A stretch of DNA of 64,000 nucleotides from Lineus longissimus. Lineage: Eukaryota > Nemertea > Pilidiophora > Heteronemertea > Lineidae. The stretch covers positions 620,001 through 684,000 of the forward strand of contig NC_088317.1 of assembly GCF_910592395.1 (NCBI RefSeq), written 5' to 3'. Made by a program: the position numbers and the translations under genes. This document shows, in pieces, positions 9,568-39,935 of this stretch (positions are counted from its first letter, which is position 1; the number at the start of each line of letters is the position of its first letter). The notes under the pieces were generated by a model, which was given only the letters and a program-made list of their open reading frames with translations, did not search any database and was not told where the DNA came from.

Positions 9568-12530
<2,963 letters not shown>

Positions 12531-15612: not shown

Positions 15613-15987
15613 CACTAAGTCTCTTCCGGAAGTCTGCTTAACAATGGCATATATACTACTGGACAATTACTGGAGCAAAAGAGACAATACTACTGGTGTT
15701 AACAGTATTGTCTTTAACGCCAAATTCCAGATTTATGTTTCAATGAGTAACTAACCTTAAACACTACTGCTATCTGAGTAAAAGCTCATTCGATACGCTC
15801 GACAATCCATTTGGTTTGAGGATAACAAATGAAGACAAGAACACAAGGTCTATCGTCACCAGAAAAGTCTATAATTTTGAGAATGAAAGTATTTATTTGT
15901 TCCACTGCTTCCTTCGAAAGTACCAACAAAGAATCGAGAAATATCACGACGTTCCTGGTCTACGCTTCTTTAGTAACCAACTCACGA
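15613..15987. other. 3' flanks of two convergent genes
   Basis: The acetyltransferase (+) and the large modular gene (-) converge here. Apart from the minus-strand poly(A) signal at 15892 nothing is recognised. Confidence 0.4.
15892..15897 (-). terminator. Candidate poly(A) signal of the large modular gene
   Basis: AATAAA on the minus strand, 91 bp after the proposed stop codon at 15988-15990, which supports the proposed terminal exon. Confidence 0.45.
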
Positions 15988-16004
15988 TCACCCAGTGGAC
16001 GAAT
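15988..16004 (-). CDS. Terminal coding exon of the large modular gene
   Basis: A strong ttgtttcag acceptor precedes 17 bases that complete a Tyr codon and then read Ser-Ser-Thr-Gly-stop. Joined to the last D exon this gives GISWSYSSTG-stop. That matches the D-to-C junctions of other cassettes (GLSWSYSGS, GISWSYSSS), so it looks like a C exon cut short by a stop. Confidence 0.5.
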
Positions 16005-19000
16005 CTGAAACAACAAAAATTATGCGTTTTTTAGATAAATACATGTACGACGAGAACATAAAGGAATATCTATTGCCACTGGGCAGGTATGCCGCACATT
16101 GGATGCTCACTCGATACGGAGGCAGCACTCCTATATTGTTATTGATCCATAAAGGTTCAAAGATGGCCAGCATTTCATCCAACATCTTTGTAGCTGTACT
16201 GCTTCACTGTTCACGAATTGTCTTTGTATTGCCTTTAAATGATGTTCGAGGTTAGATATTGAAGTGTGGGGTTAGTACTGCCTGACTGTTCTTATTCAAA
16301 ACTGGAGTTTGGTCCAGATCGCGGAATACACACATGGAAAGGGAGAAACCACGTTGACTACTTACAGCTTGTTCTGGAATAACCTAAAACGAGCACATAA
16401 AGTTGGTGTGTTGACAGTTTGCAAGGAACATGAAAAATATAGAGTAACAGTGATTCGAAAAAGTGTCGACACAATACAATGTCAATTACGTGTTTTTGAT
16501 CTCTGTCCTGAATTTAACTTGACACGTCCAACCCTACCCCTGCATCAGCGAACAATGGAGCAGGACTACTCAACGGGGGACTATGTCTACGTTCCCATCG
16601 TTGATAGAGGTGGCTGTTACTTACTGCTGCTTGTTCGCATGGGCGTGGTGTAAGACCGAGTGGATGCTGAAACACCAAGGATCGTGATAAGGTGCGAAGG
16701 TTGACCATTCATGCTCCGGCCATCATTGTCAAGAAGAGATGGCTAAGGCATGTTTTCCACATCTTTGGTGTTTCCATACAGAAGGCAGCCAGAGCTAGCG
16801 ACCACGACTTTTTAATAGGGGAACACATAGAAATGTGTCACTCTTGTTTTCCAACGCACTCTAAAACAATGAGAGGAAAAAGAAATACTCGGAATCATCA
16901 CACCTGTACTGGTACATGGATTGTCAAAGTGGTAAACACAATCAGAAGTAAACTCTACAATAAAGACTAGTAAATGCTTTTACTTCAGTTTTGTACAGAA
17001 AGGCCTAGTGAAAATGTACATGGAGATTTAGATAAAAGCATTTGCTAGTCTTTATTCATATCACCCATTAACTCGATTGCATCGATAGCTATCTGTCCTT
17101 CTTCATGAGCGTGCAATCTGACTGTGATAATTCAAGATGTATTGCACCAGCCAAGTGGTTCTTTTAACCCGGTGTATTACTTACACGACCAACTGATTCC
17201 TATTGAAGAGAAGAGGTGTTTAAATTAGGATGCAAATGTTAACATAGTGCATGTCCTCTTAAAAGTGGTAGTTGTAACTTTTTGTGTGCGGTCACTTTGG
17301 TATAATTTGAAGGTATGAAGTCATGGGCAGCGCTTGACGACAAGCGACACACATACTGGAACACTACTCATCGAGATAGTGTCAACTAAATGCTCTACAT
17401 TGTATGCTAATAGTTACTTAGAAATAGTTCTGATAGTTACCATACTTGGCCGCGTTCGTCTTCACTAAACAAAGAAGAAACAATAACGATACTTTCATTT
17501 ATCGTTTAGGGATCTAAAAAATATGAGCATAGTAAAACAAGGTTCTCAGTTTGTGGCTGTCGATGAAGTGAGAGCCCTGTGACCGATTTAAAAGAACGGA
17601 TCGGGGCCTGTTGTATCTAGATGTGTGGTAGAGCTGTATCTTATCTTGACGGTTCCTGCCACCAGCTGTCACCTTAAACTGTGATTATGTACAGACCATC
17701 AGCACTCCATACTTCGAACTCCTACCCGTATGATAATATAGGGCCAACTGCATTTATTCAATGAAATACTGATACTTACACCAAGCCGTGAACAGTTTAA
17801 AGTCGGACACTAGAACAAAAAGTGAAAAATAAAAAACATACATTCTAGCTAGAAAGAACAAGGGGTAGTATTTTCTTATTATTGATTGTCGAAAGATGAT
17901 TGGAAACAAAGAAAGCTGACCCCGGACAAAAACACGATCAGTAGGCATGGTAGGAACAAGGCTGTCGTGACAACACGATTTGTACATGTATCAGAATGCA
18001 AGAATTGAGCAGCGATAAGTATGAGGTAGTACAATGTCCACAGAAGATTGGAACAGAATACCTACATATTTCAACCTGAATGGTGTTGGTCTTTTACAAA
18101 AGTCAAACTCACCTTTGCAGTTGGTTCCTTTAGCCGTTGTTCCTGAAGGACATTTACCATACGCTCCAAACATTGTCAGAGGGAAGGTTTGCCCGGAGGC
18201 GGATTGCACTGAGGAAATGGAATATGATGCTTTAATCAGTCGAGGAAACGAGTACGTTTTCTTTGAAAAGTTAACAATAATGATGATAAATTCTAGACTG
18301 CAGCTGTGGTAGTGAGGAGTCATCCAATAGCCGCAATCAGACAATGATAGTCAAGGTTTATAAAGAATATGAAAACCAACTCCCTACACAACATTTGTGG
18401 TTAATTGCAAGGCAATGATATTCCACAGTTACAGTCTAAATATGATTTAAAGGATCGATCTAGAGTTTTCGTTTGATACTCAGTTACTTACTGGTTTGCA
18501 TCGGCTGGGTGGAGGTAGTGGCTGAATGTCAACGAGAACAAGTGACCCATATCATTATATTTAGACTCCGACTACATACAATGTACAAAATATTCAGATT
18601 TTCATTGTTATCATTGGTATCATAAAGAGAGAACAAGAAAACCAAAAAGAAAGAGACGATCGTGCGTGATTCCTACTCGGTGTTTATAAAACTACATGAA
18701 CATTATCAGCAATACGTATTTGTCCATAGAATTAATAATTCTGCATTTCCAAGAGAAAAAAGTCATCTGTTTGTTCAACTTACCAGTCCAGCTGATTCCT
18801 AGAAGAAGAAAAATGCTTTAAAAACCGAACTGGCCATGGGATACTTCGAAACAATCAACATGCCTGTATTTGTAAACTCGATCAGTGCGTGAAAAATTCC
18901 TGATCATATTGGTGATATCTCTTGGATGGCAGTTCGAGGCTTGTTTGAGGCTATATCCTTGAATGAGATTGTCATTCTTATATTACATTTGGTCAAATCG

Positions 19001-22000
19001 ATAAATTATTCATGTCTACCACCTTGGAAATTAATACACTTTGTCGAAACTATACAATCATTAAGATGAAGTTTTATTAAGAACAAGAATACTAAATACG
19101 TTAGAAAAGATGTTGTTACCATATTTGGCTGCATTCGTCTTCACTACAAAACCAGAAACATCAATTACATTAGATTTGACCTAGACCTAGGTCTATGTGA
19201 CCAGACATTATTATTATGATGAGACTCGTAGACAGAGGATGTGACTACAGAAGTGGGCGAGCCATACACGAGATGGGCATCATTAACAAGACACTTCATG
19301 AGTGGGAATCGGGAGTCCTCAGCCAAAGGATGTTGTGGAGAGGCTTTTTGGGGAGACGAAAGCCGGTGGTAGCAGCGAACACTGCCACTGCTTGCCTATA
19401 CATGTATATGGGGAAATGGTTTTGAGACTCGACTCATTGGGTGATATGAATAAAGAGAAGTTAATGCTTTTATCTAAAACTCCAAGTACATTTACACTTG
19501 GCCTTTCTGTACAAAATTGAAGTAAAAGCATTTGCTAGCCTTTAGCCTGTCTATTCGAGAAAGTGTAGTTCCCTTTACTGCCACTGCCATAGATCCATTT
19601 GCTAGCTCACTGTCTGCAATCCTTTGACAAGTCCCTTTGATGTCATTACTAGGAGATCTGTTTGTAGATTTGATACTTACACCAAGTTATGAATAGACTG
19701 GCGCTGGTCACTGGAATAGATAATTTGGAACACTTAACAAACTGATCAAAAACGACGTCTCGGACAAGAAGTAGTGATGCGATGGACAGTTGTACAGTTA
19801 TATTTGCAATGCAACTAGCATTTCATCCAATTCTACTTTGAATCATATCATGTCATTCAAGACCATTGGGAGAGAAAGCACACGTTCTGACTGTCATCCT
19901 CACCTTTGCAGTTGGTTCCACTGGCCGCTGTTCCTGAAGGACATTTACCATACGCTCCAAACATTGTCAGAGGGAAGGTTTGCCCAGATGAGAATTGCAC
20001 TGGAAAATAAGTAGGCATGTTATGATATCTTTATTAGACGTCTCAGGGCAGCATTTCACGTCACTACTCTAATAAGAGTCCAAAACGTAATTAAGTTGGG
20101 ACTGGGTTTTGATGTAATTTTTTCTTCGTTACTTACTGGTAGAAGTGCTGGTACTGGTCGAAGAGGCTGAAATAGCAAGATGCTTGTCTATTCAAGAGAA
20201 CGATATGAGAAGTTTATAACATATCAAATGGAAAAGGGAACCATCCAATCCAATCAATCGCCATCAATGTCATCAGCATATGATGGTGTCTAGTTATGGT
20301 ATTCAGCGAAGGAGTTATCATGTTGTTCGTCTAGTGCATCTTTGCATATTCGTACTGTTCATGGAAGAAGCTGTCTAATCTTCTATATGAATATAGTTTA
20401 CAAGAGACCATGAAAAGGCATTCGTACTTTGTCCTGATCCGTGGTTGTCCCCGGATATGTGTCCTTCTTCAAACCCTGAAGATCCACCACCCGATTCGTG
20501 GCTGTCTCCAGATGTGTGTCCTACTTCATACCCTCCCGATCCGTGGCTGTCCCCAGACGTATGACCTACTTCATATCCGTCTGATCCGTGGCTGTCCCCT
20601 GCTGTGTGTCCTTCCTCATACCCTCCCGATCCGTGGCTGTCCCCAGACGTATGACCTACTTCATATCCTTCTGAGCCGTGGCTGTCCCCTGCTGTGTGTC
20701 CTTCCTCAAACCCTCCCGATCCGTGGCTGTCCCCAGATGTGTGTCCTTCCTCATACCCTCCCGATCCGTGGCTGTCCCCAGATGTGTGGCCCTCCTCATA
20801 GTCTGATCCATGCTCGTCGCCAGATGTGTGGCCCTCCTCATAGTCTGATCCATGCTCGTCGCCAGATGTGTGGCCCTCCTCATAGTCTGATCCATGCTCG
20901 TCGCCCCACGTGTGACCTTCCTCATAGTCATAGTCGCCAGACGTGTGACCCTCCTCTTTCCCTTCTACAGTTTAACGAAGAGAAAAGCACACTTTATGAA
21001 AAATCAAAGTAACCGAGAGAGGGAGAACATATACTGTCGATGTTGTCCATTCCCATGCCTGATGCTGAAAACATTCCTTATAAACTGACTGCTGATATTA
21101 TCACATACTGATGATGTCATTTTTTCTTTCTCAACTGTGCTTGTCAGTATTTACTTTATGGAAAATATTTTGATCATGAGAATTTGATAACTAGAGTCCT
21201 GGGCAAATGATTGTCATCTGACTACGCCATACCTCTGACTGTATAAGACTTACCAGTTGGGAAGCTAAGATTGGTGACTGAAAGACGAAATATGCAGTTA
21301 GTCACCTTTGTTTTCTTATTTATATTAATCCAACTTCTCAGGCAAGGCATTACTACGGTGAGAAACGCTGGCGTTTAATATAAATATTAAAGATGTTTGT
21401 AAGGCGTCAACCAGCTGGTTCATCTTCGATCATCTTCCTGTCCACTTACACTCGTCCTACGTATACACGTGATGCCTCACTAATATTTTAGATACATGTA
21501 TTGTAGATATTTGAGGCATTTGCATGGAGGGGCATAAACTATGCCAGATGGCAACTGGATCCCTATAAAAGCTTTGTGTCCTCTCTTTGCGACAGTGCAC
21601 ATACAAGAACAATTGTCCCATGGTCTAACCCATGAGCTGATTGCCAATGAATTGATCAGTTTACGTAATGGCATTACTCTCTTGTTCATTTGGGCCATGG
21701 ACGGACTGAATGCCCTATTGACATGACATAGCGAAAACTGCTTTAAGTTTGCATGGCCATACTTACTTTTTATGAAGTATTTGGCAGCATTTGCTTTCAC
21801 TGTTAAGAAAACAACAACAAAATATCTTAAATCAGCGTTGCCCTCATTCAAACCGAATTTACAAATTTGTGGTTGATTCTGATTTGTTCTTTCTTTACTA
21901 ATCTGTGCTAGACAATGTTAACCTAAATTCATATAAATCAGTTTTACGGAGATACAGTTTTAATTATTTAACAAGTTCAATTAATGATGACTTATATATT

Positions 22001-25000
22001 TATACAAAGATCAACGTTATACTCTTAAAAGCACATCAAAATATTACTTTTTGGTAATTTCATACTTACGCCATGTGACGAACATCATGAACTTGTTGAC
22101 TATAAACAAAGCAATGGGTTATTTTATATCAGTTGCTGGTTAGTTCTTTGTTCGCTGATGTTTGGTTATTCTTTTGAAGATTGACAGAGATTCGAAAAAG
22201 CAGGTGTCCATTTATCATCATCATTTCGGAATCGTGTTCCTTTCGGAACTTTCCCAGAATTGTTGAGACATTTGTGATTCCAGATAGAATTAACAAGGAA
22301 AGGTCTAGCAATGTCGGTAACTTACTGACACAGTTGTTTCCCTTTTTCTCAGTGCCCTTCGGGCAAACACCCTTGAAGAAGTAGATGGAATAACTACCAT
22401 CTGAAATATGAGAAAGGTCATGCTTGGTCAAGCCAGTGCAGCCACGAACCATACACAGAAGTCCATTGTGCAGCCATATCATCGAAACATTCGGATAGAG
22501 TTCGCGTTATACTCTGACTGAAGACAAACGGACAAAATGATGTTATAAATGCCAAGAGCAATCTTGTCTGAAGTACCATACATGTCAATCTATTGAGATC
22601 TTCATGAATCCTGATCTCTCCTACCTGGCTTGAATTGAGTTGTATCCAACGTGACTGAAGCGAAAATAACGTATGGTCATATTATTTGATGCATTGAATC
22701 ATTACATGCAAATGTAAAAAAAACCAGTGTGACTACAGCATGTGTCCACTCAAAAGAGAAATCATGTAATCTTGTCAAAACTGAAATACCTCCTCGACCA
22801 CAATTGTTTCAGGGATTTCCCTAAGTTTGATCAGAATGCATCTTTAGCCAATTTTTAAACAATTGAACAGCAATTATTTAAGTGTCTAATACTTACCCCA
22901 AGGAATGTTTAGTTTTGAGACTTAATAGAAAGAGAGGTAGAATTAGATGAAAGAAGAGAGAATGGAAAGGATGCTTCCAACAGTCACAGTTGGAAAAGGA
23001 ATTGGAAGTAATATGCAACAAATGCAGCCCACAAAAGAACTGACCTGCTATTGAATGGGACAATACACAGCATATTTCCACAAGTAAACCAAACTCTTTT
23101 TAAGAAGTATCTAAATCGACTTAACACAACGGTAGTCTAGATCGACGTTTACAGAGGTTTACTTACTGTCGATGTTATAAGTCGCAGCATTTACTCTAAC
23201 TGTTTAAAGAAGAATATGATATTGCTACGTCATACTTTTAGAAGACCTAAACCTATTCTCTGCCGTGTGAACGACAGTGCCATGAGTGAACAGAGTTCTT
23301 TAAAAACGTCCAGATGGATGAGCAAGTTATAAGATAATAGTTCTCAGTTCTAACAGGCATTGTATTAGGTGGTATTGTAAGGGATGTCACGAAAGAAGAC
23401 TCATCAGATAAATGAAAAGAAACAAATTTCTCTTTCATAATGAATGACAGTAAACATCTTGATTGGCTACTTACACCAACTTATGAATAGGTTGAACTGC
23501 TTGACTGAAAAACAAAACAAATACACCCAGTTGAATAATTAAGTCTTGAAAGAACAGGTTGGAGGCTCTTTGAATTGATTGCAGAGGACGTTAGGATGTT
23601 CACACCAGAATATCCGTCTGAGGATGCCTTTCTAGCCCTGCAGGTGCAAGGCTTGTCACATCATCCACGGCATCAGATGGGGAAACTTAGTGAATTTGAC
23701 ATGGAAACACCTACAGGACTGTCCCCTGTACCAGGATTTACGAAATAGATTCTGGCCAAAGGACACGAAGGTCGAAGAAAAGCTGTGGGGAACACAGCCG
23801 GACCTTCGGGCGACAAGCCGCTTCATCTCCGCCACAGGACTGAGGTTATAGTACTTAGGCAGGTTGAACGCTGAAGAAGAAGAAGAAGAAGACATGGAAA
23901 CAGAGCAGAGATGTTGGAGAATTACTTACTGAGACAGGTGTTTCCTTCCTTGATGGTTCCCACTGGACATACACCATTGAACAACGTGACCGAAAATGTA
24001 CCCCCTGAAACATAGAATTTCTCTATGTAGGTTCTCTAATAGCGTCAAGAGTGTACTGAAATCTCCCAGCCAATCTACTACAGGACAGGACAGAAAAAGT
24101 GTCCCATCCTCTGTCCTCCCTGTCAATCCATAACTGCCCCACAATATCATATTGATGATTTTCCCCTTCAAATTTCTTGGCAGAAGTGCTTACAGATTCC
24201 TCACCGTAAATAAGCTGGCACAATGTTACAAAACATGGATTCCCACAAAAAAATACATACAATTTAAGTATTTTTATATGTTATTATAATTTGGTTCTCC
24301 ATCTTTAAGATATTACTGAAACACAAGAAATTCATCGATATTATGAGCAGTTTCTAAATTCCTTATTTAGCCAATTCTATTTTTAGCTGTATGGATTGTA
24401 AAGTAATCTTCAGATAACAGACACTTAGCTACCGGTTGACATACCTTGTTTCAATTCGTTTTGAGTGATGATGACGGATGGGAACGTTACTTGCGTTACT
24501 AAATGTGTATAAGAAGGTAACATTATGATATATGTGATCAACAACAGTTAGTCCCAGGTGATAATCTTGAACTAAAAATACAGGAAGATTTTGGACAACT
24601 GGAGGATTTGACAGGCTAATGGCTTTTATCAATAAGTTTCCCAAATGTCTTAATAAGGTCAGCTGGCCTCGTGGCCTAATGGACAAGGCGTCTGACTTCG
24701 AATCAGAAGATTGCAGGTTCGAGTCCTGCCGGGGTCGATATTTTTGTATAAATACTTACTGTCAATGTTTAATTTCACAGCATTCTTTTGCACTGTAAAC
24801 AAAACATGACATAAAAACACTAATGACTTCTAATAAAGTTTTTGATTTATGAAATGAACTGTGGGGAGGTACTGGGTTGGTAATTACACTCTGAAGATAG
24901 CAAGATGTGATCATAGCGAAACTGAATGCAGATAGAAATTCGGGTTTGTGGGTCTCAATCACGTTTTTAAAGAACTTTAGATAATATTACTCAGAGAACA

Positions 25001-31000: not shown

Positions 31001-34000
31001 AGGCCTTTAGACATAACACTCAATCTAACCCCAAGTCCGTAGCCTAAGGTAATGCTTTTGAGCAACCAGGCTCTGTAGACTAATCATAAAGTGTGATTGA
31101 ATCTCGATAGTCACGAATCATTGAGATTTGCTATCTGAATGAATAGAGTCTACTCACTTTGGCATCCGGAATCAATCTTATATTCAAAGTCTTTCTTACA
31201 GTTGCAATCATAACCTCCTTGTTTAGGTTTACACGTGGCATCACCCTTACATGGTTTCTTGGTCACACACAGGTCAATCACTGAAACGAAGAACCCTTTT
31301 TTTAACAAAGTAGAACCCTTTTTTTAACAAAGTATACTAGCTTGGCTTTCTAACATCTTATACTTTATGTGTAATTAATTTATCAGTACAAGTCTTTAAA
31401 CAATGTTAAAAGTCTTATTAATTTCTTTGCACATATTTACAGGTAACTGCTCATTATATGTTATTTGTACAACTTTTCCAGCTACTGAAACGTTTTTATG
31501 GACAACAGCTGAAACTTCATTTGATAACCTAAGAATGCTGCTATGCGTTTTTATTTCCGATATTATAGCTGCCTTTAACCTCTCAAATGTTTGCCAAAAA
31601 AGATTATATCTGCTTAAAGGAAGTTAGTTAAACTGGTACAGCAGAGAAACGTGTTTACCTTTGCATCCTGAGCTCTTATCATATTCGTAGTTCGTTTCAC
31701 ACTTGCACTCGTAACTCCCAGTCTTAGGAACACATTTGGCAGTACCTTTACATGGAGTCTTGGTGTCCGTACAAAGGTCCACAGCTAGTTTTAGAAGAAA
31801 TGAAATAACATGTACGTATCTGAACTACTGAATAACATGTGTCAAATTAAACTAACATCAACAGCTAATTCCTGTCATCTATGCATTAGTTAACGACTAA
31901 CGGGTGTAGCTTTATTTTGTTGTCGTTTGCAGAAAGTTAGACCTAACATTCCTTTCTAAGGGCATAACATCTTGATGGTCGAGACATACAACTAACTTAC
32001 CATTTAACATGCTTAACGTGATTCCTGATAAGAATAAAGTAAGAATTTGATATAACTAAATAATGTATTGACTTTATTGTACAAACATGTAAAACAGACA
32101 TTGGGAAGACATTGTCAATTAACTAATATGTGAACGCTGACTCTTGAGCAAAAATTATATTGAAGTATCTGACAATTCCTGCATTGGTGTACTTTTACTG
32201 TCAGAACATAATTTATGAGCCTTCATACACATTTAGCAACATGAGAGACATATAAATGTTGTCAATGACACTGATGTGAAAGCAAGAACTAACAGGTAAT
32301 CATATACAAGTTAGACTTACCAATTTTTGGCCCAGTGTTTTGAACTTGTGAATGAAAATAACACGAATATGAAAATATAGCAAAATAGTGATTGATATTC
32401 TATGAAATAACGTACTATCAGGGGCTGAAAAGCATCTGAAGCTATAAAATTGGAAGTGGTCACTATTTTCTTTGCCATATGATGCACATTGAAACTGATT
32501 AATTTTGTAATGTTATTTTTCCATTTTAACATGGAACAAGATAAGTTTTACTCTGAACCTTTTGATAATCACCAATGCTGGGACAGTAGTCGCCCTTGCA
32601 ACATTTCCCGCTGATTCATGAGAAAACATTGGTACAACATTGATTGACTAGAGTCATGTTTTCGAACTCTTTGAAAGCACTTTAAGGCTAAATGTCTGCT
32701 GAATGATTCTTGTATTCGACTTACCCCAGGTCAAAAACAAATTGACGCTGGTGACTGAAATACAATATACATAGCATTTCATGTGTCAGTCATGAAGAGG
32801 GGAGAAGGGGAGGGTTGGAATCTTGATGTAATACAAAAAGTTTCGTTCACGCAGCAGCTTTAAATTGACAAGACATTTGCCGCATCAGTTTGAGCATTGG
32901 CAGCAGTGATTATATTGACCGTTTATGTTAAAACTATTGAAGATATAAGATAATGGACGTTACCTTTACACATGGAGCCGTCAATCACTGATCCCTTTGG
33001 ACAGACACCCTTGAATAGGATCAGTGGGAATGTCATTCCAAGCTTGAAGCTAACTGTTACGCTGGAAGAATCTACAATGGATAAGCATGTCATGACTATC
33101 ACATCGTCACAAGAAATGAGCATTTACCTACAATACGATTCCATACAATTTTATGGGCACACTTGGCAACAGTCTCATGCGCGCTGAGTATTTACGATGA
33201 AGAAACCAATAATTATACATTTGGCCAGGACCACCGTTTTAATGGTATACTACCGGGAGAAGACATCATCATCTGATTATCTGGATTTCGCACGAAGTTA
33301 CGCTAAACTGCAACTGTTATACTTACAAGACCATGAAATGCCTATAGGAATATAATAGAAAAAACGTTACCAGCAAATTCTGATGTGATATCACCACCTC
33401 CAGTAAAGCTTACGATTGAGAAGAGAGAATGAATTAAAATCATTTCGTGGCAATGTCTGTATAAGTGAAATTAAACGAATCATGATAATCAGTTCTTAAA
33501 GTTATCATTGTATATCATTATGAAAGACATATAGTGCTTCTCCACAGTAAAATTAGGCATTTCATAAATATAATCTTTGTCTTACCAAATTTCATAGCGT
33601 TGATCTTGACTGTAAAGGTGAGAAGAAAATATGACAAATGGTTATGAATGAGCAAAGTATGACGAAATGGTATCTAAACCCCTCGGTTATTCGGGTCACA
33701 TTCAAGGTCACACGAATCTAGGTCACACGAATCTAGGTCACATACTGCTTAGAGCATATAGTGATATTTCAGAATTCAATTTGACAGTTACTGTTTTGTT
33801 GGATTTCAACCAAAGGTAGATAGAAATTGTCATTTGGTTGATACGTTTTTCTAAAACCGATGAGATCTGATCGGAACGTAATTTACTTACCCCAATTTAG
33901 AAAAAGTTGCACGTTTGTTACTGAAGAATTGAATTGAAAAGGTCAAAGCTTATTGATGAAATCATTATAACTACAGCTCTACTTTCAAATGTGTCATACC

Positions 34001-37000
34001 TCATGGGAGATGAATCCGAAATTGCATAACCTTTGGTATGATATCTTATTTTCGCCCAGCCCCGTAGTCGCGTGATAGATAAAGGTCATTAGAAACAGAA
34101 ATATGCGAACTTCCCTGCAGAATGCCCTTGTCCGTACGACAGTAACGATGGTTATTGGTGATACTAAGTGAAGGCCTACATGTGTTCTCGGACAACGCCC
34201 TTATCATGGTCACAGCTGGAGAAAATGAAATTTGATAATGAGTTCTACTCACCAGTGCACATCTTCCCCGATGTCTTCGTCCCTGAAGGGCATGTTCCCT
34301 TGAACATACTGATGCTATAACTGTTACCCATTTTCACCTCGACAATAGTCTGGGCTGAAAGATAATTTTAAATACGTTATAGGATTATGAAGTACAGTAT
34401 TTACCTGAACCAATATACAAATGACTGCACTCTTAGAAATAAAGTTTTTTAGATTTTGAAAAACACTTTGGCCAACACAGATACACAATCCGTAGAGGTT
34501 TTTAGTTATGAGGAATAAATGGTACCTACTTGGGGGTGGGTATGTGAAGCCCGTCATTGTAATTCCTATTGAAAAGAAGCAGGATAATGATGAGATTATA
34601 ACATAAATGAGACTCAGATGAAACTCTTTCAAGCAATTCATAATCACTAATCAGTTTTTTAATCCAGGTTTTTCCCATTCTCATTCTCTCCGTTTCTATT
34701 GATACCTTAGTAGGCTATAAGGCATCAAATGATGATTTCATGTTTATGTTGATTGCAAGAAGAGTAACTGTGCTCACCACGACATTTTAAACGGATTAAA
34801 GTGTGGAACGAGACTTACCGAAGGTAGTACCATACAACTTCACTGCAAAATATAGATTGGAAACATTTCAAATATTTTGACCTGGGCGTATATCTTTGAA
34901 GCGATGAAGTCAAAACTATGAAGTTTTCAATAGCGGAGTATTTGTTGTTAGGAGCGGCGTTTCGGTCTTTAAATCATCGGGAAAGTATTACCGCACACCA
35001 ACCACGACCCCCATAGATCTCGTTTCTTCCCGCCATTGTGTCATTTTAAAACGAACAAATATGGCAAACTGGGACGGATTTCGGGTGAGGCTGGGAAAAA
35101 TTCGTTGTCGAGACGACGGAGGCCACAAGATTTCCATTGTGGATGTAAGACAGTGCAAGACTCACCCCACTGGTTGAACAGCTGTATATTCGTGACTGAA
35201 ATCAGAAAGATGACATCCTGTTTGACTCAATAACGCTTATACATTGTAATTCGCTGAATACTGGGACAGAAAGTGATGGTGAGGTTTACATCTCTTTACG
35301 TGGAGTTCATCGTAATCTTTAGTTCTAAAATTGTTGTCGTACCAACTTTTGAGGATCAAACGAATTGGTCCTTCCCAACAAAAGAAAAGATAGTTCAGAG
35401 TTGGGACAAAGAAGGCAAACATCAGGCATTCTGGCCCTTACAAGAAGCCTTATCAACGGATCATTCGCTCACTCGCTATCTTCCACACTCACTCACTCAC
35501 TCACTCCCCACTCCTGCCACTTGACATTCACGTTAACAGTGCTACAGGGTAACAACTTGTCCATCAAAATCAAATTCATACCTACTCGAACACATCGATC
35601 CCTTCGTAACCGTCCCTGATGGACAAGCGCCCCTGAACAGTGTCAGGGGGAAGGTTTCACCCATATAGAAGGTTATCGAGCCTGAATCTGTAGAAAAGAG
35701 AGGGTAGATGTTGACTGTTAGAAAATCCGATATCGACCATTATCAATATCGTTATTGAACGTAAGAAATGACCCGCCTGTCTTTCCTGCAGATTAGAACA
35801 ACATAATGACTTGAGTCTGCTTAAAGTTACCTCGCTACTTCACGCTACAAAATGATTGTTTTTCGTCAATATGAAGAACGAGTACGTATTGGCCAAATCC
35901 TTTTTTTGCTTAAGCGATAAAAGCGAAAGGTAATGATTGACCGGGTCTTCTTCTCTCTGCTCACCGACAGGCCATCAAACCGTTCTGTTTACATATGAAA
36001 GTTCTGGATGTTCTTTCAGCTCAGTTTTTATGTCACAATAAGTTCTGTTGGCGACATACAAGTATTTGACATAGTACAAGGCTACATGCAGAGTACTTAC
36101 AGCTCCAAGAAAGTCCTGCAAATGTAGAAAATCCGAGAGCATGTACATAGTGGACAAGTGTGTAATAGAACTCACGGCAGGAAGAAAATTTCCTCGAGCT
36201 TGCTCTGTTTGATAATATACATGTTAGATCAGGATGATGATCCCGTGTTAATACATTGGTTTGACGGATAATGTTGTTTTTATTGCACTTGACAATGGCA
36301 TTGCGGCCTTACACAATATACATCTGATATATTGAAGACGTGGAGGACATCTTACCGTATTGTTTAGCATTGGCAAATACTGAAAATATGCCACAATAAT
36401 AATAAAAATTAGGATAGAAAATAGTACCGCAATAGCTGTCATTTTGGCCAATTGGAAGCTCTGAATCCTGTTTCAGCGAGACTGGTTTAAATTTTGGCCA
36501 ATTGAAAGCTCTGGATCCTGCTTCATTGAGACTGGTTTAAATGTGAACCAATTAAAAGGGGCCATTCTGTTTATGGCTTAGGAAAGTGTCACTGAAAGAA
36601 AGAAACATCTGGCAAAAACCGTTTCAAAATATTTAAGCCTTCTGTGGTAAACCAATTGAATGTATTCTATGTTTGATACTTACACCACTGGATAAAAAGC
36701 TTCGTGCTGGTCACTGATGAAATGAAAGAATAGGAAAGGAACATTAAACGGACAGAGGCCATCGAGGTCGCCTCGTGCCATATTGGCCATATTGCCTGTA
36801 CCGTAAATTGACCTACTTACGCTTTGAAAGGTAGGTCAAATTGACCTAAATATGACAAAAGCGACACCAACATTAAATTTCTCAATCATTGTGAATGACC
36901 AACAGGTGTCAACATTCCAGATTTAAATCTCCTACGAGCAGTGATCAAGAAACGAAGCCACACAAAACAGCACCATGAACGTCTGGCCAACACTCGGCAC

Positions 37001-38813
37001 TAATGAACGTGTGCGAGGGATGAGCACACAACTGACTGGTATTCGACGATGACAAAACTGTGGCTTGAAAATCTTTATGTTCGAAAATAATGTCCGGTTT
37101 TGCTCACCGTTACACTCAGGTTCGCTGTACTCCCCGTCATCTTGCAGGTAGGTTGTACCAGATGGACATTTTCCTTTGAACTGCGACAGAAGGTAGTGCT
37201 CGCCCAATTTCACAATAATTACAACTGAAAGAGATACATTATTTGACTTAAAAATATGCTAGTTTGTTCCTTTGCAGACATGCAATAATCTACAAACATC
37301 AACTTATGCGCTGGCGGTGAATCTGATTACCAATGCATCATGTGAGTCCAATATGATAAATGATTTGAGAGGGGGATCGAGGCTTTGATGCGCCCTTGGA
37401 CAGTGGTGTAACTGTCGGATGAGTAAGGAGAGTGGGATGTGTATGGAGAGGGAGGAGGCTTCATGGCCGGATCTAGGTCAGTGCCTTGACAGACTTGGGT
37501 TCAGACATGCCCGAACTGTGAATAGACCTACCACTGTGACTAGTGTCCTCGCTTCCCCCATGGCCAAACTCGTATTCGGATCCATGGCTTGTATCATCGC
37601 TGCCTCCGTGGCCGAACTCGTATTCAGACTCGTGGCTTGTATCATCGCTGCCTCCGTGGCCGAACTCATATTCGGACCCATGGCTTGTATCCCCGCTGCC
37701 TCCGTGGCCGGATTCAGAACCGTAACCATGGCTGGTGTCACTGCTACTGCCATGGCCGGACTCGTAACTTGATCCATAACTGGACTCGTGGCTGGTGTCG
37801 CCACTGCCTCCGTGGCCCGACTCGTAACTGCTGCTGCTACCCCATGAATCACCAGAATATCCGTCATCATAATCTAAAAATGTGAACAAGCAGTCGTGAG
37901 AAGAGTAGCATCCCTATATATAGCCCATTAAAATTGTCTTCGATCCGCAACGCCGTAGTGGGGCGGGCCAGTAGTGCCACTTGTAGTGGGGCAGAGCTGG
38001 TCTATAGCATCCCCTGGTGGATAATTGTAATCAAAACCATTTAGACAATCTTACGCTCTTAGAAACCCTATCATACTCTCTGAAACCCTCTTACAACCAA
38101 GGGAGGGAGAGGTAATTTGTTCCCATATTTGTGCATAGAATCTTGATTATTGAATTCTGCCGGGAATCGCGGGAGCCAACCTGCAGTGTTCATCATGACG
38201 AGACCTTCAAGTACATATTTGCGTGTTCTTGTCAACAAATGCGTCATCTTCTGGCATTACACTCTGTGAAGAGAGATGAACATTGATAAGTCTGGTTGCT
38301 TTTGAACAATTGAAAGCAAACTGACCGTAGATTTATATACAGTCCCGTACTTACCGCCGTCTCCATTATGTGCTGTAACATCAAAAAGAAGAATTGAGCT
38401 TGCCATGTTTTCGTGTTAGATCTTAGTTATGGTTTCTGGCCTGCTAATGAGTCTCACTTCACACCAACAAGGACAGTATCAACAAGGTAGATTTCTTGAA
38501 GTTTCGATAAAAGTGAGATTTCACTGATAATGTATTGTCAATGCTGAGTTGCGGTCGCGTAAGTCGTTATTTGACTATCACAGGCCGCCGAGTAAACAGG
38601 TAATGAGGGTACGAATGAGGGTACGAAATGAGGGTACGAATGAGGGTACGAAACCTAGAAACGTTTCAAATGCGTTTTGTTTTAAATCTGGAAAATTGTA
38701 TTCTAAAGTTGGTACATAGAAGCATTGTACTCACCCTCTACTTTAAGGTGGGCCACCGCCAAGGCCAAAACAAAAAGGAGGACAGGCAGCCCGCTGGGTG
38801 ATGATGCCACCAT
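15988..38813 (-). CDS. Large secreted modular protein: SGH-rich repeats, 16 EGF-like domains, nine novel cassettes
   Basis: I reconstruct one gene of about 61 exons and about 1,550 residues. Order from the 5' end: signal peptide; 6-residue exon; SGH-rich exon 1; cassettes 1-4; 16 EGF-like exons; cassettes 5-7; SGH-rich exon 2; cassettes 8-9; terminal exon. Each cassette is four small exons: C (25-39 aa, G-x-C-P-x-G-T-x3-G-x2-C), A (10 aa, V-T-x-x-x-L-F-x-x-W), B (8-11 aa, V/L-K-x-N-A-x-K-Y-G) and D (5-15 aa, often G-I-S-W-S). Every placed boundary is phase 1 with a recognisable GT donor and AG acceptor, and the frame stays open throughout. The signal peptide, EGF domains and absence of a membrane segment point to secretion. 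His/Asp/Glu/Ser-rich blocks suggest metal or mineral binding (inference). I do not recognise the cassette as a known domain. Whether all exons belong to one transcript is untested. Confidence 0.7.
16005..17184. other. Long last intron of the modular gene
   Basis: It holds a 114-codon plus-strand open frame (16309-16653) with no recognised motif or splice support, which I treat as chance, and MITE copy 1 at 16959-17067. Confidence 0.4.
16959..17067. mobile_element. MITE family copy 1 (left end truncated)
   Basis: The right end (aaagcatttgctagtcttta then ttcatatcaccca) is complementary to the left end (taaagactagtaaatgctttta). The same element occurs at 19438-19544 and 50978-51093. It lacks the outer tgggtgatatga on the left, so it is truncated or diverged. 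It is non-coding and lies in the last intron of the modular gene. Confidence 0.75.
17185..18208 (-). CDS. Cassette 9 of the modular gene (exons C9, A9, B9, D9)
   Basis: Exons 18113-18208 (C9), 17780-17809 (A9), 17441-17464 (B9) and 17185-17199 (D9). C9 reads G-Q-T-F-P-L-T-M-F-G-A-Y-G and then K-C-P-S-G-T-T-A-K-G-T-N-C-K, almost identical to C8. A9 is VSDFKLFTAW, B9 LKTNAAKYG, D9 GISWS. All are phase 1. The near-identity of C8 and C9 shows a recent cassette duplication. Confidence 0.7.
18492..18521 (-). CDS. Ser/Thr-Gln linker exon of the modular gene
   Basis: A 30-bp phase-1 exon encoding ATTSTQPMQT between cassettes 8 and 9. It resembles the TSSTSTSTST linker exon at 20137-20166. It probably encodes a flexible, possibly O-glycosylated spacer (inference). 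Confidence 0.55.
18784..19999 (-). CDS. Cassette 8 of the modular gene (exons C8, A8, B8, D8)
   Basis: Exons 19904-19999 (C8), 19681-19710 (A8), 19120-19143 (B8) and 18784-18798 (D8). C8 carries K-C-P-S-G-T-A-A-S-G-T-N-C-K, A8 is VTSASLFITW, B8 LKTNAAKYG, D8 GISWTG. Boundaries are gtgagg, gtaagt, gtaac and gtaag donors, all phase 1. MITE copy 2 sits in the A8-B8 intron. Confidence 0.7.
19438..19544. mobile_element. MITE family copy 2
   Basis: Starts tgggtgatatgaataaag, contains atgcttttatctaaaactcc and tacatttacacttggccttt in the middle and ends aaagcatttgctagccttta. It is homologous to copies 1 and 3. The right outer end is missing or diverged. Confidence 0.75.
20137..20166 (-). CDS. Ser/Thr linker exon of the modular gene
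   Basis: A 30-bp phase-1 exon encoding TSSTSTSTST, between SGH-rich exon 2 and cassette 8. Acceptor atttcag, donor gtaagt. Confidence 0.6.
20428..20964 (-). CDS. SGH-rich exon 2: acidic His/Gly/Ser repeat array of the modular gene
   Basis: A 537-bp exon (179 residues) composed of about 12 copies of a 15-residue repeat, approximately Y-E-E-G-H-T-S-G-D-S-H-G-S-G-G. The copies nearest the 5' end (first three, acidic) use D-E-H-G-S-D; later ones use D-S-H-G-S. His, Asp/Glu, Ser and Gly dominate and there are no cysteines. A ttctacag acceptor and a gtacga donor keep phase 1. The composition recalls metal-binding or adhesive repeats (inference). The plus strand is also open for 200 codons here, which is a shadow caused by the repeat. 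Confidence 0.75.
21254..22400 (-). CDS. Cassette 7 of the modular gene (exons C7, A7, B7, D7)
   Basis: Exons 22326-22400 (C7), 22070-22099 (A7), 21767-21799 (B7) and 21254-21277 (D7). C7 contains F-F-K-G-V-C-P-K-G-T-E-K-K-G-N-N-C, A7 is INKFMMFVTW, B7 LKANAAKYFIK, D7 ITNLSFPT. All are phase 1 with gtaag-type donors. SGH-rich exon 2 follows directly. Confidence 0.68.
22625..24004 (-). CDS. Cassette 6 plus linker of the modular gene (C6, A6, B6, D6, E6)
   Basis: Exons 23930-24004 (C6: LFNGVCPVGTIKEGNTC), 23475-23504 (A6: IKQFNLFISW), 23167-23199 (B6: FRVNAATYNID), 22897-22920 (D6: ISKLNIPW) and 22625-22654 (linker: VTLDTTQFKP). The linker resembles the exon at 27549-27578 (GVITQSEIKP). All are phase 1. 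The C6-A6 intron holds an unexplained minus-strand open frame at 23656-23895 that may be an old repeat. Confidence 0.66.
24445..25428 (-). CDS. Cassette 5 of the modular gene (C5, A5, B5, fused D/linker)
   Basis: Exons 25354-25428 (C5: IFNGKCPQGTELVGNNC), 25057-25086 (A5: IKQFNLFIIW), 24760-24792 (B5: LQKNAVKLNID) and 24445-24489 (ITFPSVIITQNELKQ). The last exon looks like a D exon joined to a linker, because its end matches VITQSEIKP at 27549. Its cgcaag acceptor is weak. A tRNA gene lies antisense in the intron before it. Confidence 0.64.
24665..24737 (+). tRNA. tRNA-Arg-TCG: tRNA-Arg (anticodon TCG)
   Basis: A 73-nt gene with a fully paired acceptor stem (GGCCTCG with CGGGGTC, two G-U pairs), A box TGGCCTAATGG, anticodon loop CTTCGAA on a CTGA/TCAG stem and B box GGTTCGAGTCC. 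It matches the standard animal tRNA-Arg(UCG) layout and has no intron. It sits antisense inside an intron of the modular gene. Confidence 0.92.
25500..26272. repeat. Duplicated ~780-bp segment, copy 1 (contains tRNA-like SINE head)
   Basis: This block is repeated at about 26398-27190 with high identity across its length. On the minus strand at about 25694-25765 it has a tRNA-like head (A-box-like TGGCCTCAGCGGTTAGACGG, B box GGTTCGAACCC). Another shared part begins aatctaggaactggaagaag. The tRNA-like part suggests a tRNA-derived SINE within a larger duplicated unit. It lies in the intron between the EGF array and cassette 5. Confidence 0.75.
26398..27190. repeat. Duplicated ~780-bp segment, copy 2
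   Basis: Direct repeat of 25500-26272 with scattered substitutions, plus about 40 extra bases (ttaggagccgtgcgtctggt and following) near 26511. The tRNA-like head on the minus strand is at about 26616-26685. The two copies are about 125 bp apart. Confidence 0.75.
27435..27508 (+). pseudogene. tRNA-Arg-like pseudogene
   Basis: Starts GGCCTCGTGGCCTAATGGAT and keeps the B box GGTTCGAGACT, close to the intact tRNA-Arg at 24665. The anticodon arm is damaged (CTGACACCAGTCCAG), so no proper loop forms. It is probably a decayed tRNA copy. Confidence 0.6.
27549..27578 (-). CDS. Linker exon after the EGF array
   Basis: A 30-bp phase-1 exon, GVITQSEIKP, between the last EGF exon and cassette 5. It has a ctctcag acceptor and a gtaagt donor and resembles linkers near cassettes 5 and 6. 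Confidence 0.6.
27836..31784 (-). CDS. Sixteen EGF-like domain exons of the modular gene
   Basis: Each exon (about 120-126 bp, phase 1 at both ends) encodes one EGF-like domain with cysteine spacing C-x5-C-x5-C-x8-C-x-C-x11-C. The typical start is IDLCKTTKPCKGGATC and the end YEYVKGTGCK. The first exon is 31659-31784, followed by divergent domains ending near 31280, 30870, 30570, 30341 and 30038. Nine nearly identical exons then repeat every 206 bp (29812 down to about 28041), and a diverged last exon occupies 27836-27958. No Asp-x-Asp/Glu plus Asn calcium-binding signature is evident. EGF-like repeats are typical of secreted and matrix proteins. Confidence 0.88.
28041..29812 (-). repeat. 206-bp tandem array of EGF exon plus intron
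   Basis: Nine head-to-tail copies of a 206-bp unit, each an EGF exon of about 126 bp and an intron of about 80 bp (with gaagaaagatgaaataaact and aaacaagccagatagatcac). Copies differ at only a few positions, in intron and exon alike. That indicates very recent duplication or gene conversion. Confidence 0.92.
32001..33071 (-). CDS. Cassette 4 of the modular gene (C4, A4, B4, D4)
   Basis: Exons 32964-33071 (C4: FKGVCPKGSVIDGSMC), 32724-32753 (A4: VTSVNLFLTW), 32321-32344 (B4, diverged: VQNTGPKI) and 32001-32024 (D4: GITLSMLN). Phase 1 throughout. D4 joins directly to the first EGF exon. A second, unexplained open stretch with splice-like ends at 33371-33412 was left out. Confidence 0.66.
33327..34354 (-). 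CDS. Cassette 3 of the modular gene (C3, A3, B3, D3)
   Basis: Exons 34253-34354 (C3: SISMFKGTCPSGTKTSGKMC), 33891-33920 (A3: VTNVQLFLNW), 33586-33609 (B3: VKINAMKF) and 33327-33341 (D3: GISWS). All are phase 1. D3 plus the first two bases of C4 rebuild a Tyr codon, as at the D1-C2 junction. Confidence 0.7.
34530..35687 (-). CDS. Cassette 2 of the modular gene (C2, A2, B2, D2)
   Basis: Exons 35586-35687 (C2: LFRGACPSGTVTKGSMC), 35166-35195 (A2: ITNIQLFNQW), 34819-34842 (B2: VKLYGTTF) and 34530-34565 (D2: GITMTGFTYPPP). Donors are gtaggt, gtgagt, gtaagt and gtaggt. All are phase 1. Confidence 0.68.
36101..37224 (-). CDS. Cassette 1 of the modular gene (C1, A1, B1, D1)
   Basis: Exons 37108-37224 (C1), 36684-36713 (A1: VTSTKLFIQW), 36356-36379 (B1: LFANAKQY) and 36101-36115 (D1: GLSWS). 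C1 reads QFKGKCPSGTTYLQDDG and ends in a Glu-Cys-Asn, an expanded version of the C motif. All are phase 1. Confidence 0.66.
37532..37873 (-). CDS. SGH-rich exon 1 of the modular gene
   Basis: A 342-bp exon encoding about 114 residues dominated by Ser, Gly, His, Asp and Tyr. The unit is about 15 residues long, near E-Y-E-F-G-H-G-G-S-D-D-T-S-H. The acceptor is attttag and the proposed donor gtaggt (phase 1). Without splicing, the frame runs another 20 codons to a stop, so a shorter isoform ending here is possible. The repeat is related in style, but not identical, to SGH-rich exon 2. Confidence 0.72.
38355..38372 (-). CDS. 18-bp micro-exon of the modular gene
   Basis: Between a gttacag acceptor and a GTAAGT donor, phase 1: Ala-His-Asn-Gly-Asp-Gly. 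Frame and splice sites fit, but an exon this small needs transcript proof. Confidence 0.5.
38605..38650. repeat. Short tandem repeat (tgagggtacgaa units)
   Basis: Four copies of aatgagggtacga, in the intron after the signal-peptide exon. Confidence 0.75.
38735..38813 (-). CDS. Signal-peptide exon of the modular gene
   Basis: Begins Met-Val-Ala-Ser-Ser-Pro-Ser-Gly and continues with the hydrophobic core LPVLLFVLALAVAHL, then Lys-Val-Glu, ending phase 1 at a GTGAGT donor. This is a good secretory signal peptide with cleavage likely near Ala-His or soon after. It sets the start and the extracellular fate of the protein. Confidence 0.75.
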
Positions 38814-39160
38814 TTGGCTTTTGTAATTATACTCTGAAGAAGCAAGACAGGGAGAGAGATCGCTAGTTAAAGGGACGCTTGGACATAAAATTGAATGTTC
38901 ATACAAAAAAGCTTGTAGCAGGACCGTGACTTCTTCAAACAGGATAATTTAGTAAGAAATTTGTTTGCAAGTGGTAGCGCATGGTGGTGAGCATGCAGGG
39001 GTACTATCCACCTGGCCAGGCTTATCCCACGCACACGTTGTCCATTTAAGGTGCCTCGCGATCGGCTCATAGTTATAGCTGTGTTATGGCCCGATTTCGA
39101 CACGGGAATCTAAAGTGTTAAAGTCTGTAAAGAAGCAAAGGACACAAACACATAACGCAC
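38814..39160. other. 5' flank of the modular gene
   Basis: Upstream of the proposed start codon. No TATA-like or other promoter motif that I would defend. Confidence 0.35.
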
Positions 39161-39162
39161 CA

Positions 39163-39935
39163 TCCATATGAGGACCATCCATATGAGGACCATCCATATG
39201 AGGACCATCCATATGAGGACCATCCATATGAGGACCATCCATATGAGGACCATCCATATGAGGACCATCCATATGAGGACCATCCATATGAGGACCATCC
39301 ATATGAGGACCATCCATATGAGGACCATCCATATGAGGACCATCCATATGAGGACCATCCATATGAGGACCATCCATATGAGGACCATCCATATGAGGAC
39401 CATCCATATGAGGACCATCCATATGAGGACCATCCATATGAGGACCATCCATATGAGGACCATCCATATGAGGACCATCCATATGAGGACCATCCGTATG
39501 AGGACCATCCGTATGAGGACCATCCGTATGAGGACCATCCGTATGAGGACCATCCGTATGAGGACCATCCGTATGAGGACCATCCATATGAGGACCATCC
39601 ATATGAGGACCATCCATATGAGGACCATCCATATGAGGACCATCCATATGAGGACCATCCATATGAGGACCATCCATATGAGGACCATCCATATGAGGAC
39701 CATCCATATGAGGACCATCCTTATGAGGACCATCCATATGAGGACCATCCATATGAGGACCATCCATATGAGGACCATCCATATGAGGACCATCCATATG
39801 AGGACCATCCATATGAGGACCATCTATATGAGGACCATCCATATGAGGACCATCCATATGAGGACCATCCATATGAGGACCATCCATATGAGGACCATCC
39901 ATATGAGGACCATCCATATGAGGACCATCCATATG
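39163..39935. repeat. 15-bp satellite, about 51 copies
   Basis: Uninterrupted copies of atatgaggaccatcc. Six consecutive copies near 39496-39570 have gtatgagg, one at 39721 has ttatgagg and one near 39824 has ctatatgagg. Because the unit is a multiple of three and lacks stops in several frames, both strands show long open frames. I regard these as artefacts, not genes. Confidence 0.95.

What the first reader, a model, noticed from the sequence alone, without database searches (positions are those of the whole stretch)
15988..38813. Candidate new gene: a 61-exon secreted mosaic with a repeated cassette I do not recognise
Nine copies of a C-A-B-D cassette, 16 EGF domains and two His/Gly/Ser-rich arrays follow a signal peptide. 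The C exon motif G-x-C-P-x-G-T-x3-G-x2-C and the A/B exon motifs L-F-x-x-W and K-x-N-A-x-K-Y-G recur with enough divergence to look like an established domain family. No membrane segment is visible. This is the best candidate in the window for an undescribed extracellular system, perhaps an adhesive, cuticle, mucus or mineral matrix protein.
Basis: partly seen in the sequence, partly recalled or inferred. Interest (0 to 1): 0.9.

Follow-up and report, generated by a model that had tools for sequence, protein, structure and literature searches.

The report
Ribbon-worm secreted mosaic protein gene
This looks like a real ribbon-worm gene of about 63 exons for a secreted protein built from nine copies of a small domain that I could not match to a known family, sixteen EGF domains and two acidic histidine-rich stretches; it may be part of the worm's mucus or glue, but that is not yet shown.

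Summary
On the minus strand, 38813 to 15988, I read a 63-exon model (reader: 61): 1,569 aa, 62 of 62 introns GT-AG and phase 1, a signal peptide, nine C-A-B-D cassettes, 16 six-cysteine EGF exons and two acidic His/Gly/Ser arrays. Contig sizes identify the genome as the bootlace worm Lineus longissimus, chromosome 10. The cassette is best read as one ~55-residue two-cysteine domain: a relative has C+A in one open stretch and, less surely, another has A+B+D. It recurs at four other places in the genome, with PAN, F5/8C and LamG exons nearby. It has no significant Pfam, PDB or protein-collection match, though that collection probably holds few animal genes. Charge is blockwise: arrays -24 and -43, Lys-rich EGF block +66. 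Best reading: a coacervating structural component of mucus or adhesive secretion, comparable in principle to EGF-bearing mussel plaque proteins. Function, expression and a single transcript are inferred, not shown.

The parts
38735..38813 (-). first exon: start codon and signal peptide (MVASSPSGLPVLLFVLALAVAHLKVE)
   Evidence: the stronger of 2 ATG-to-phase-1-donor hydrophobic candidates in the gene
38355..38372 (-). 18-nt linker exon L0
   Evidence: splice score 16.2
37532..37873 (-). acidic His/Gly/Ser array 1 (48-nt repeats, 114 aa with the split codon, net charge -24)
36101..37224 (-). cassette 1 (exons C 37224-37108, A 36713-36684, B 36379-36356, D 36115-36101)
34530..35687 (-). cassette 2 (C 35687-35586, A 35195-35166, B 34842-34819, D 34565-34530)
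33327..34354 (-). cassette 3 (C 34354-34253, A 33920-33891, B 33609-33586, D 33341-33327)
32001..33071 (-). cassette 4 (C 33071-32964, A 32754-32725, optional 9-nt exon 32424-32416, B 32344-32321, D 32024-32001); C and the 9-nt exon have weak splice scores
   Evidence: scores 6.0 for C, 12.8 for B, 9.5 for the 9-nt exon
27836..31784 (-). 16 EGF exons of 120-126 nt, one domain each; the 3' copies form a 206-nt tandem array (27922-29813, 96% matches)
   Evidence: selection
27549..27578 (-). linker exon L5 (VITQSEIKP)
24445..25428 (-). cassette 5 (C 25428-25354, A 25086-25057, B 24792-24760, D 24498-24445)
22897..24004 (-). cassette 6 (C 24004-23930, A 23504-23475, B 23199-23167, D 22920-22897)
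22625..22654 (-). linker exon L7 (TLDTTQFKP)
21254..22400 (-). cassette 7 (C 22400-22326, A 22099-22070, B 21799-21767, D 21277-21254)
20428..20964 (-). acidic His/Gly/Ser array 2 (42/45-nt repeats, 179 aa with the split codon, net charge -43)
20137..20166 (-). linker exon L8 (SSTSTSTST)
18784..19999 (-). cassette 8 (C 19999-19904, A 19710-19681, B 19143-19120, D 18798-18784)
18492..18521 (-). linker exon L9 (TTSTQPMQT)
17185..18208 (-). cassette 9 (C 18208-18113, A 17809-17780, B 17464-17441, D 17199-17185)
16625..16666 (-). linker exon L10 (STRSYTTPMRTSS)
15988..16004 (-). terminal exon, 17 nt with stop codon; weakest part of the model because it is so short
   Evidence: acceptor GTTGTTTCAG
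15892..15897 (-). AATAAA 90 nt past the stop, possible polyadenylation signal (24 AATAAA/ATTAAA hexamers were found on this strand over the gene interval, so weak)

Best explanation
[quoted passage not shown] Shown from sequence: a signal peptide, nine copies of a ~55-residue unit with one cysteine pair, sixteen EGF domains that lack the calcium-binding residues and carry 7-9 Lys and 2-3 Tyr each, two acidic low-complexity arrays holding 35 histidines, and relatives of the unit at four other places in the genome. Inferred: the EGF block is a disulfide-braced scaffold that displays Lys and Tyr; it pairs electrostatically with the acidic His arrays, within and between molecules, so that the secretion condenses into a coacervate or gel, with His and Asp/Glu giving a metal- or pH-dependent set; the cassette, which elsewhere in the genome lies near PAN, F5/8C and LamG modules, is a protein- or glycan-binding adhesion module. 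The likely site is epidermal mucus or the sticky proboscis secretion.
For: Gene anatomy. Block charges -24, +66, -43 and 19.4% Lys, 5.5% Tyr in the EGF block. Calcium motif before C1 in 0 of 16 EGFs and Asp/Asn at C3+2 in 0 of 16 (consensus recalled). Other family places show Thr-rich, Glu/Ser-rich or Gly-rich exons among the cassettes and have PAN, F5/8C and LamG exons. Mussel Pvfp-5beta: EGF modules expose Lys and Tyr, and it coacervates without DOPA according to its authors (PMC9314366, abstract and passages). Limpet adhesive-mucus proteins commonly carry EGF, and one pairs a galactose-binding domain with five EGFs (PMC7333891, passages). Nemertean proboscis secretions may contain glue-like substances (PMC6410017, passage).
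Against: No expression, tissue, proteomic or biochemical data. The fold of the cassette is unknown and was not predicted; disorder of the arrays was not computed. EGF mosaics and proteins with PAN, F5/8C or LamG also occur in internal matrix, recognition and egg-coat roles (recalled). I could not compare the Lys richness with other EGF arrays of this genome (EGF search unanswered). A mucus proteome paper on another pilidiophoran ribbon worm has 0 occurrences of 'EGF', 'PAN domain', 'structural protein' and 'mucin' in its main text (PMC11768458); its supplements were not readable.
Confidence: 0.45

Rival explanations
1. Internal extracellular-matrix protein: a fibrillin- or tenascin-like linker of connective tissue or basement membrane, with the cassette as an assembly module.
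For: Long tandem EGF array, no membrane segment; LamG, PAN and F5/8C exons near relatives.
Against: EGFs lack the calcium-binding residues (0 of 16) that stiffen fibrillin-type arrays (recalled); no RGD; Lys-rich EGFs with acidic low-complexity blocks seem unusual for such proteins (recalled, not tested).
Confidence: 0.2
2. Humoral recognition protein: a lectin-like opsonin whose cassettes and partner domains bind microbial or prey glycans.
For: F5_F8_type_C_2 (NedA-like) and Laminin_G_3 exons beside the cassette at other places; the cassette's Cys-hairpin weakly resembles that of REG3-type C-type lectins (E 0.56-0.81).
Against: The window gene has no recognised lectin domain among its 8 Pfam rows; the hairpin match is not significant and covers 14 residues.
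Confidence: 0.15
3. Egg-coat or gamete-recognition protein.
For: A nemertean egg-surface protein with EGF-like domains is known (NeZPL6, PMC11673550, abstract and passages).
Against: No ZP family among the 8 Pfam rows of the model.
Confidence: 0.08
4. Two or more neighbouring genes wrongly joined, or a pseudogene.
For: No cDNA; a 2.1-kb intron with a ~920-nt tandem repeat separates linker L5 from cassette 5; polyadenylation-like hexamers are frequent (24).
Against: One strand, one phase throughout and no frame break in 63 exons; only one other, weaker start-plus-donor candidate in the gene; a similar order, linker then short-N-terminus cassette then the other cassette types, recurs at C13 3.05 Mb; dN/dS < 1 in 34 of 34 measurable pairs.
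Confidence: 0.12

Closest known systems
Mussel plaque proteins with EGF modules (Pvfp-5beta; Mgfp-2)
   Same: secreted, tandem EGF scaffold; for Pvfp-5beta, exposed Lys and Tyr and coacervation without DOPA are reported, with conflicting work noted by the authors (PMC9314366, abstract and passages)
   Different: no sequence relationship was tested; the cassette and acidic His arrays are not mentioned in the passages seen; DOPA here unknown
Limpet pedal-mucus proteins (P-vulgata_1, 2, 13)
   Same: EGF mosaics in adhesive mucus, one with a galactose-binding domain (PMC7333891, passages)
   Different: P-vulgata_1 and 2 carry vWFD and Kazal domains, none among the 8 Pfam rows here; the cassette is not mentioned in the passages seen
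Micro-exon genes (MEGs) of schistosomes (recalled)
   Same: secreted protein, many exons of 36 nt or less (33 of 63), symmetric apart from the terminal one
   Different: micro-exons make only 17.9% of the coding sequence (845 of 4710 nt); recognised EGF domains present
Insect stress-response/ENF peptides and REG3 C-type lectin N-terminal hairpin
   Same: CP-x-G...G-x2-C type hairpin (profile hits E 0.54 and 0.095 for the peptide; E 0.56-0.81 for REG3-type lectins)
   Different: matches cover only 14-15 residues and are not significant; the LF-x2-W...A part and what follows have no counterpart shown

Membership tests
EGF-like domain (Pfam PF00008) | six conserved cysteines and profile score over the curated cut-off | tested here: met
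   138.2 bits against 21.5, 16 stretches; 16 of 16 with six Cys
Calcium-binding EGF (Pfam PF07645) | profile score over cut-off | tested here: met
   173.6 bits against 27
Calcium-binding EGF (Pfam PF07645) | calcium ligands: D/N-x-D/N/E-E/Q before Cys1 and D/N two after Cys3 (consensus recalled) | tested here: not met
   0 of 16 and 0 of 16; so EGF-like, not filed as calcium-binding
Any Pfam or PDB family, for the cassette | significant profile or sequence match | tested here: not met
   best Pfam E 0.018 (But2) and 0.047 (CC), 1 of 9 members each; in the whole protein VanY E 0.012, 15.8 bits against 25, at residues 192-210 in cassettes 1-2; best PDB E 0.095; none over a cut-off
Mussel-type EGF adhesive | secreted EGF array carrying Lys and Tyr | tested here: met
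   says that it could work alike, membership not claimed
Mussel-type EGF adhesive | presence in a plaque or glue, DOPA, coacervation | not testable with these tools
   needs proteomics and assays
Micro-exon gene (MEG) | most of the coding sequence in symmetric micro-exons (recalled) | tested here: not met
   845 of 4710 nt
ZP-module egg-coat proteins | ZP domain | tested here: not met
   no ZP family among 8 Pfam rows at E up to 10

The most novel reading that the evidence does not exclude
The cassette is an undescribed extracellular domain, split over micro-exons, that founded a family of nemertean secretory structural proteins; the window gene is a charge-block glue or gel protein, possibly of the proboscis secretion or of pseudocnidae, whose structural compounds were stated in 2021 to be uncharacterised (PMC7897414, passage).
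Probability: 0.25. Interest if true: 0.75.

Novelty: new variant of a known kind. Interest (0 to 1): 0.55.

Why it matters
It adds a domain that the Pfam copy searched does not hold, with 29 copies carrying the C exon (9 here, 20 at four other places of the same genome) plus fused variants, and its anatomy is clear enough to define a profile and test it in other spiralians. If the material reading is right, it gives a molecular handle on the proteins that make ribbon-worm mucus and proboscis glue, and a second EGF-scaffold adhesive design beside that of mussels. It also shows a ~55-residue unit cut by introns into exons as short as 15 nt, with relatives that fuse the pieces, which is useful for studying how small domains gain or lose introns.

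Tried and rejected
Organism: I first suspected amphioxus; a GFP family search of the genome was silent but so were all 14 controls, so it says nothing. Contig sizes then settled it. Known domain for the cassette: Pfam on single cassettes and on each of nine members, PDB by sequence and by two profiles, and three protein-collection searches gave no significant match. The protein-collection result is weak evidence of absence: this worm's own protein was not returned either, so animal genes with introns are probably poorly held, and candidate lengths were limited. Two-gene reading: looked for internal signal exons and poly(A) hexamers. Window elsewhere: tblastn with the single exons gave 20 weak hits outside the exons, best E 0.018 (17 residues), and the C motif none, so no second copy is seen. 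A profile built from the nine window cassettes scored 11 of 13 cassettes or variants from other places at E 5.1e-7 or better and a twelfth (b13_unit) at 1.9e-4, all above the best of 3,900 shuffles; the thirteenth, the LamG-linked variant, did not separate (E 0.5, a shuffle scored better) and is tied in only through its likeness to b13_unit (E 7.9e-8). These 13 had been picked by likeness in the first place, so the scores are partly circular. A tree of 22 cassettes is mostly unresolved, 4 of 19 inner branches well supported.

Literature (searches, listed of found: 0 of 0, 8 of 9, 15 of 33,740, 15 of 38, 12 of 33, 4 of 4, 8 of 158): no listed title or abstract start describes this gene or domain. 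This is no proof that it is not in print. I read part 1 of 2 of PMC8593623 and found passages of PMC11768458, PMC11673550, PMC9132205, PMC7897414, PMC6410017, PMC7333891 and PMC9314366. Supplements could not be read.

Full report
What was checked. The finding describes a 61-exon secreted mosaic at 15,988-38,813. The gene lies on the minus strand. I scored splice sites with matrices trained on the clearest exons, listed phase-1-to-phase-1 open exons, and completed the chain by hand. The final model has 63 exons, a 4,710-nt coding sequence with stop and 1,569 residues. All 62 introns are GT-AG and phase 1, all 61 internal exons are multiples of three, and introns run from 71 to 2,120 nt with a median near 262. 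Because the matrices were trained on this gene and only phase-1 exons were listed, the scores and the single phase are partly built in; that an unbroken chain exists, and that the same exons recur elsewhere, is not.

Anatomy. Order: signal peptide; short linker; His/Gly/Ser array 1; cassettes 1-4; 16 EGF exons; linker; cassettes 5-7; array 2; linker; cassettes 8-9; short Ser/Thr tail. Each cassette has two cysteines. Across nine cassettes F, G, C, P, G, C, F and W are invariant. 33 of 63 exons are 36 nt or shorter, but they make only 845 of 4,710 nt.

More than chance. The C-exon motif occurs nine times, all inside the gene and on its strand, never in the window outside it, and once in total in 200 dinucleotide shuffles of the window. 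Of 78 pairs among the 13 EGF exons of equal length, 34 gave dS above 0.15; all 34 have dN/dS below 1, median 0.12. The other 44 had smaller dS or no estimate; many dS values exceed 1 and are saturated, and pairs share exons, so this shows constraint but not its size. Cassettes 8 and 9 give dN 0.075 and dS 0.146, less telling. The 3' EGF units are a 206-nt tandem array (27922-29813, 9.2 copies, 96% matches), probably young, and on their own would prove little.

Whose genome. The window is contig C10:620001-684000 of a 391,118,348-base genome in 30 contigs. C9, C10 and C13 are 20,542,500, 19,402,038 and 16,850,461 bases. The published Lineus longissimus assembly spans 391 Mb in 32 scaffolds and lists chromosomes 9, 10 and 13 as 20.55, 19.41 and 16.85 Mb (PMC8593623, part 1 of 2 of the text). 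I take the species as settled by these sizes; no sequence record was compared.

The cassette as one domain and a family. Searching the genome with cassettes 1-4 gave 26 matches: 8 in the window gene, 17 at four other places (C13 near 3.05 and 4.75 Mb, C10 near 14.23 Mb, C9 near 5.1 Mb; E from 1.1e-4 to 3.0) and one on C4 at E 2.98 with two stops that I treat as chance. A query from a relative found all five places again, the window included; queries from cassettes 5-7 and 8-9 found two and three of the four other places and no new one. Together searches show 20 C exons at the four places (9, 3, 3 and 5; two of them with uncertain 5' ends, one only partial). In the listing, which used splice scores and no motif filter for the exons shown, an A exon ending in F-x2-W follows in 19 of 20 cases and a B exon in 17 of 20, one of them truncated; with looser thresholds and motif filters A is 20 of 20 and B 16 of 20. 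The places had been found by likeness to C, not by this order. Whether D follows was not counted. Some longer C9 matches contain a stop; shorter matches over two of the same exons have none, so there the stops lie in flanking sequence. Relatives also show pieces fused. A unit at C13:4.764-4.782 Mb has C+A in one open stretch (E 1.9e-4 against the window profile, above 3,900 shuffles); nine such matches lie 2.17-2.19 kb apart. A 229-residue exon at C13:3,063,620 appears to begin with A+B+D and runs into a Laminin_G_3 domain; this form does not separate from shuffled letters by profile (E 0.5) and is tied in by its likeness to the former (E 7.9e-8). I therefore read C, A, B and D as one domain of about 55 residues; for C+A this is well supported, for B and D less so.

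Company kept at other places. The C13:4.76 Mb cluster has F5_F8_type_C_2 (51.5 bits, cut-off 27.8) and PAN_1 exons (24.4, cut-off 21.4); the C13:3.06 Mb place has Laminin_G_3 (57.8, cut-off 27.6) and a PAN-like exon just under the cut-off (20.1 against 21.4). Gene boundaries there were not worked out, so these are neighbours, not proven parts of the same proteins; the LamG case is in one exon with the presumed A+B+D.

Not a listed domain. No Pfam family matches the cassette over its cut-off. In the PDB the profiles reach only an insect stress-response peptide (E 0.54 and 0.095) and REG3-type lectins (E 0.56-0.81), each over the Cys-hairpin only. Three searches of 5.8 billion proteins found nothing at E 10 (549, 7,661 and 15 candidates). 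Since the worm's own protein was not returned either, this does not show that the domain is confined to nemerteans.

How it may work. The blocks carry opposite charge: array 1 -24 over 114 residues, array 2 -43 over 179, EGF block +66 over 655 with 19.4% Lys and 5.5% Tyr; the arrays hold 35 histidines. The cassette blocks are mildly basic, +9, +10 and +11. The EGFs lack the calcium-binding residues in 16 of 16 cases (consensus recalled), although Pfam's calcium-binding EGF model scores best. For the mussel plaque protein Pvfp-5beta the authors argue that rigid EGF modules keep Lys and Tyr exposed and that it coacervates without DOPA, while noting work that disagrees (PMC9314366, passages). By analogy the EGF block would be the cationic scaffold, the arrays the anionic, metal- and pH-sensitive partner, and the cassettes adhesion modules. 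Nemertean proboscis secretions may contain glue-like substances (PMC6410017), enriched adhesion terms in the proboscis were taken to support sticking to prey or ground (PMC9132205), and the structural compounds of pseudocnidae were stated as uncharacterised (PMC7897414). These passages set the scene; none seen mentions this gene. A mucus proteome paper on another ribbon worm has no occurrence of EGF, PAN domain or mucin in its main text (PMC11768458). The site of action is therefore a guess weighted by composition.

Verdict. A well-formed gene model and a domain family not in the libraries searched; a new variant of the known kind 'secreted EGF mosaic'.

Noticed in passing
39159-39935: 15-nt minisatellite, 51.8 copies at 99% matches, starting about 350 nt upstream of the start codon.
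   Followed up: no
24664-24738 (+): Predicted tRNA-Arg(TCG) inside an intron, opposite strand to the gene; a 79% similar stretch lies at 27438-27523, possibly a tRNA-derived repeat (recalled kind, not tested).
   Followed up: no
25497-27192: Two copies of a ~920-nt unit, 91-98% alike in its pieces, in the intron between L5 and cassette 5.
   Followed up: partly
16961-17076 and 19429-19544: 116-nt inverted repeat pair, 88% complementary, 2.35 kb apart; may be a dispersed element in two orientations.
   Followed up: no
52365-57335 (-): RANBP2-like open frame of 1,656 aa with three RanBP1 domains and three RanBP zinc fingers; open frames further upstream gave no Pfam match.
   Followed up: partly
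14699-15463 (+): GNAT acetyltransferase open frame just downstream of the gene, convergent.
   Followed up: partly
6089-6922 (+) and 10903-11268 (-): Major-facilitator transporter frame and Gtr1/RagA GTPase frame.
   Followed up: partly
8388-9056: 126-nt tandem repeat, 5.3 copies, 96% matches, open in one frame for most of its length.
   Followed up: no
G000 C13:4764750-4782347: Nine matches to a cassette-like stretch spaced 2.17-2.19 kb apart; three of the units, those inside the region listed, were seen to carry F5/8C exons.
   Followed up: partly
G000 C9:5111800-5112849: Open frames that read like a reverse transcriptase of a retroelement inside a family locus (identification recalled, not tested).
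   Followed up: no
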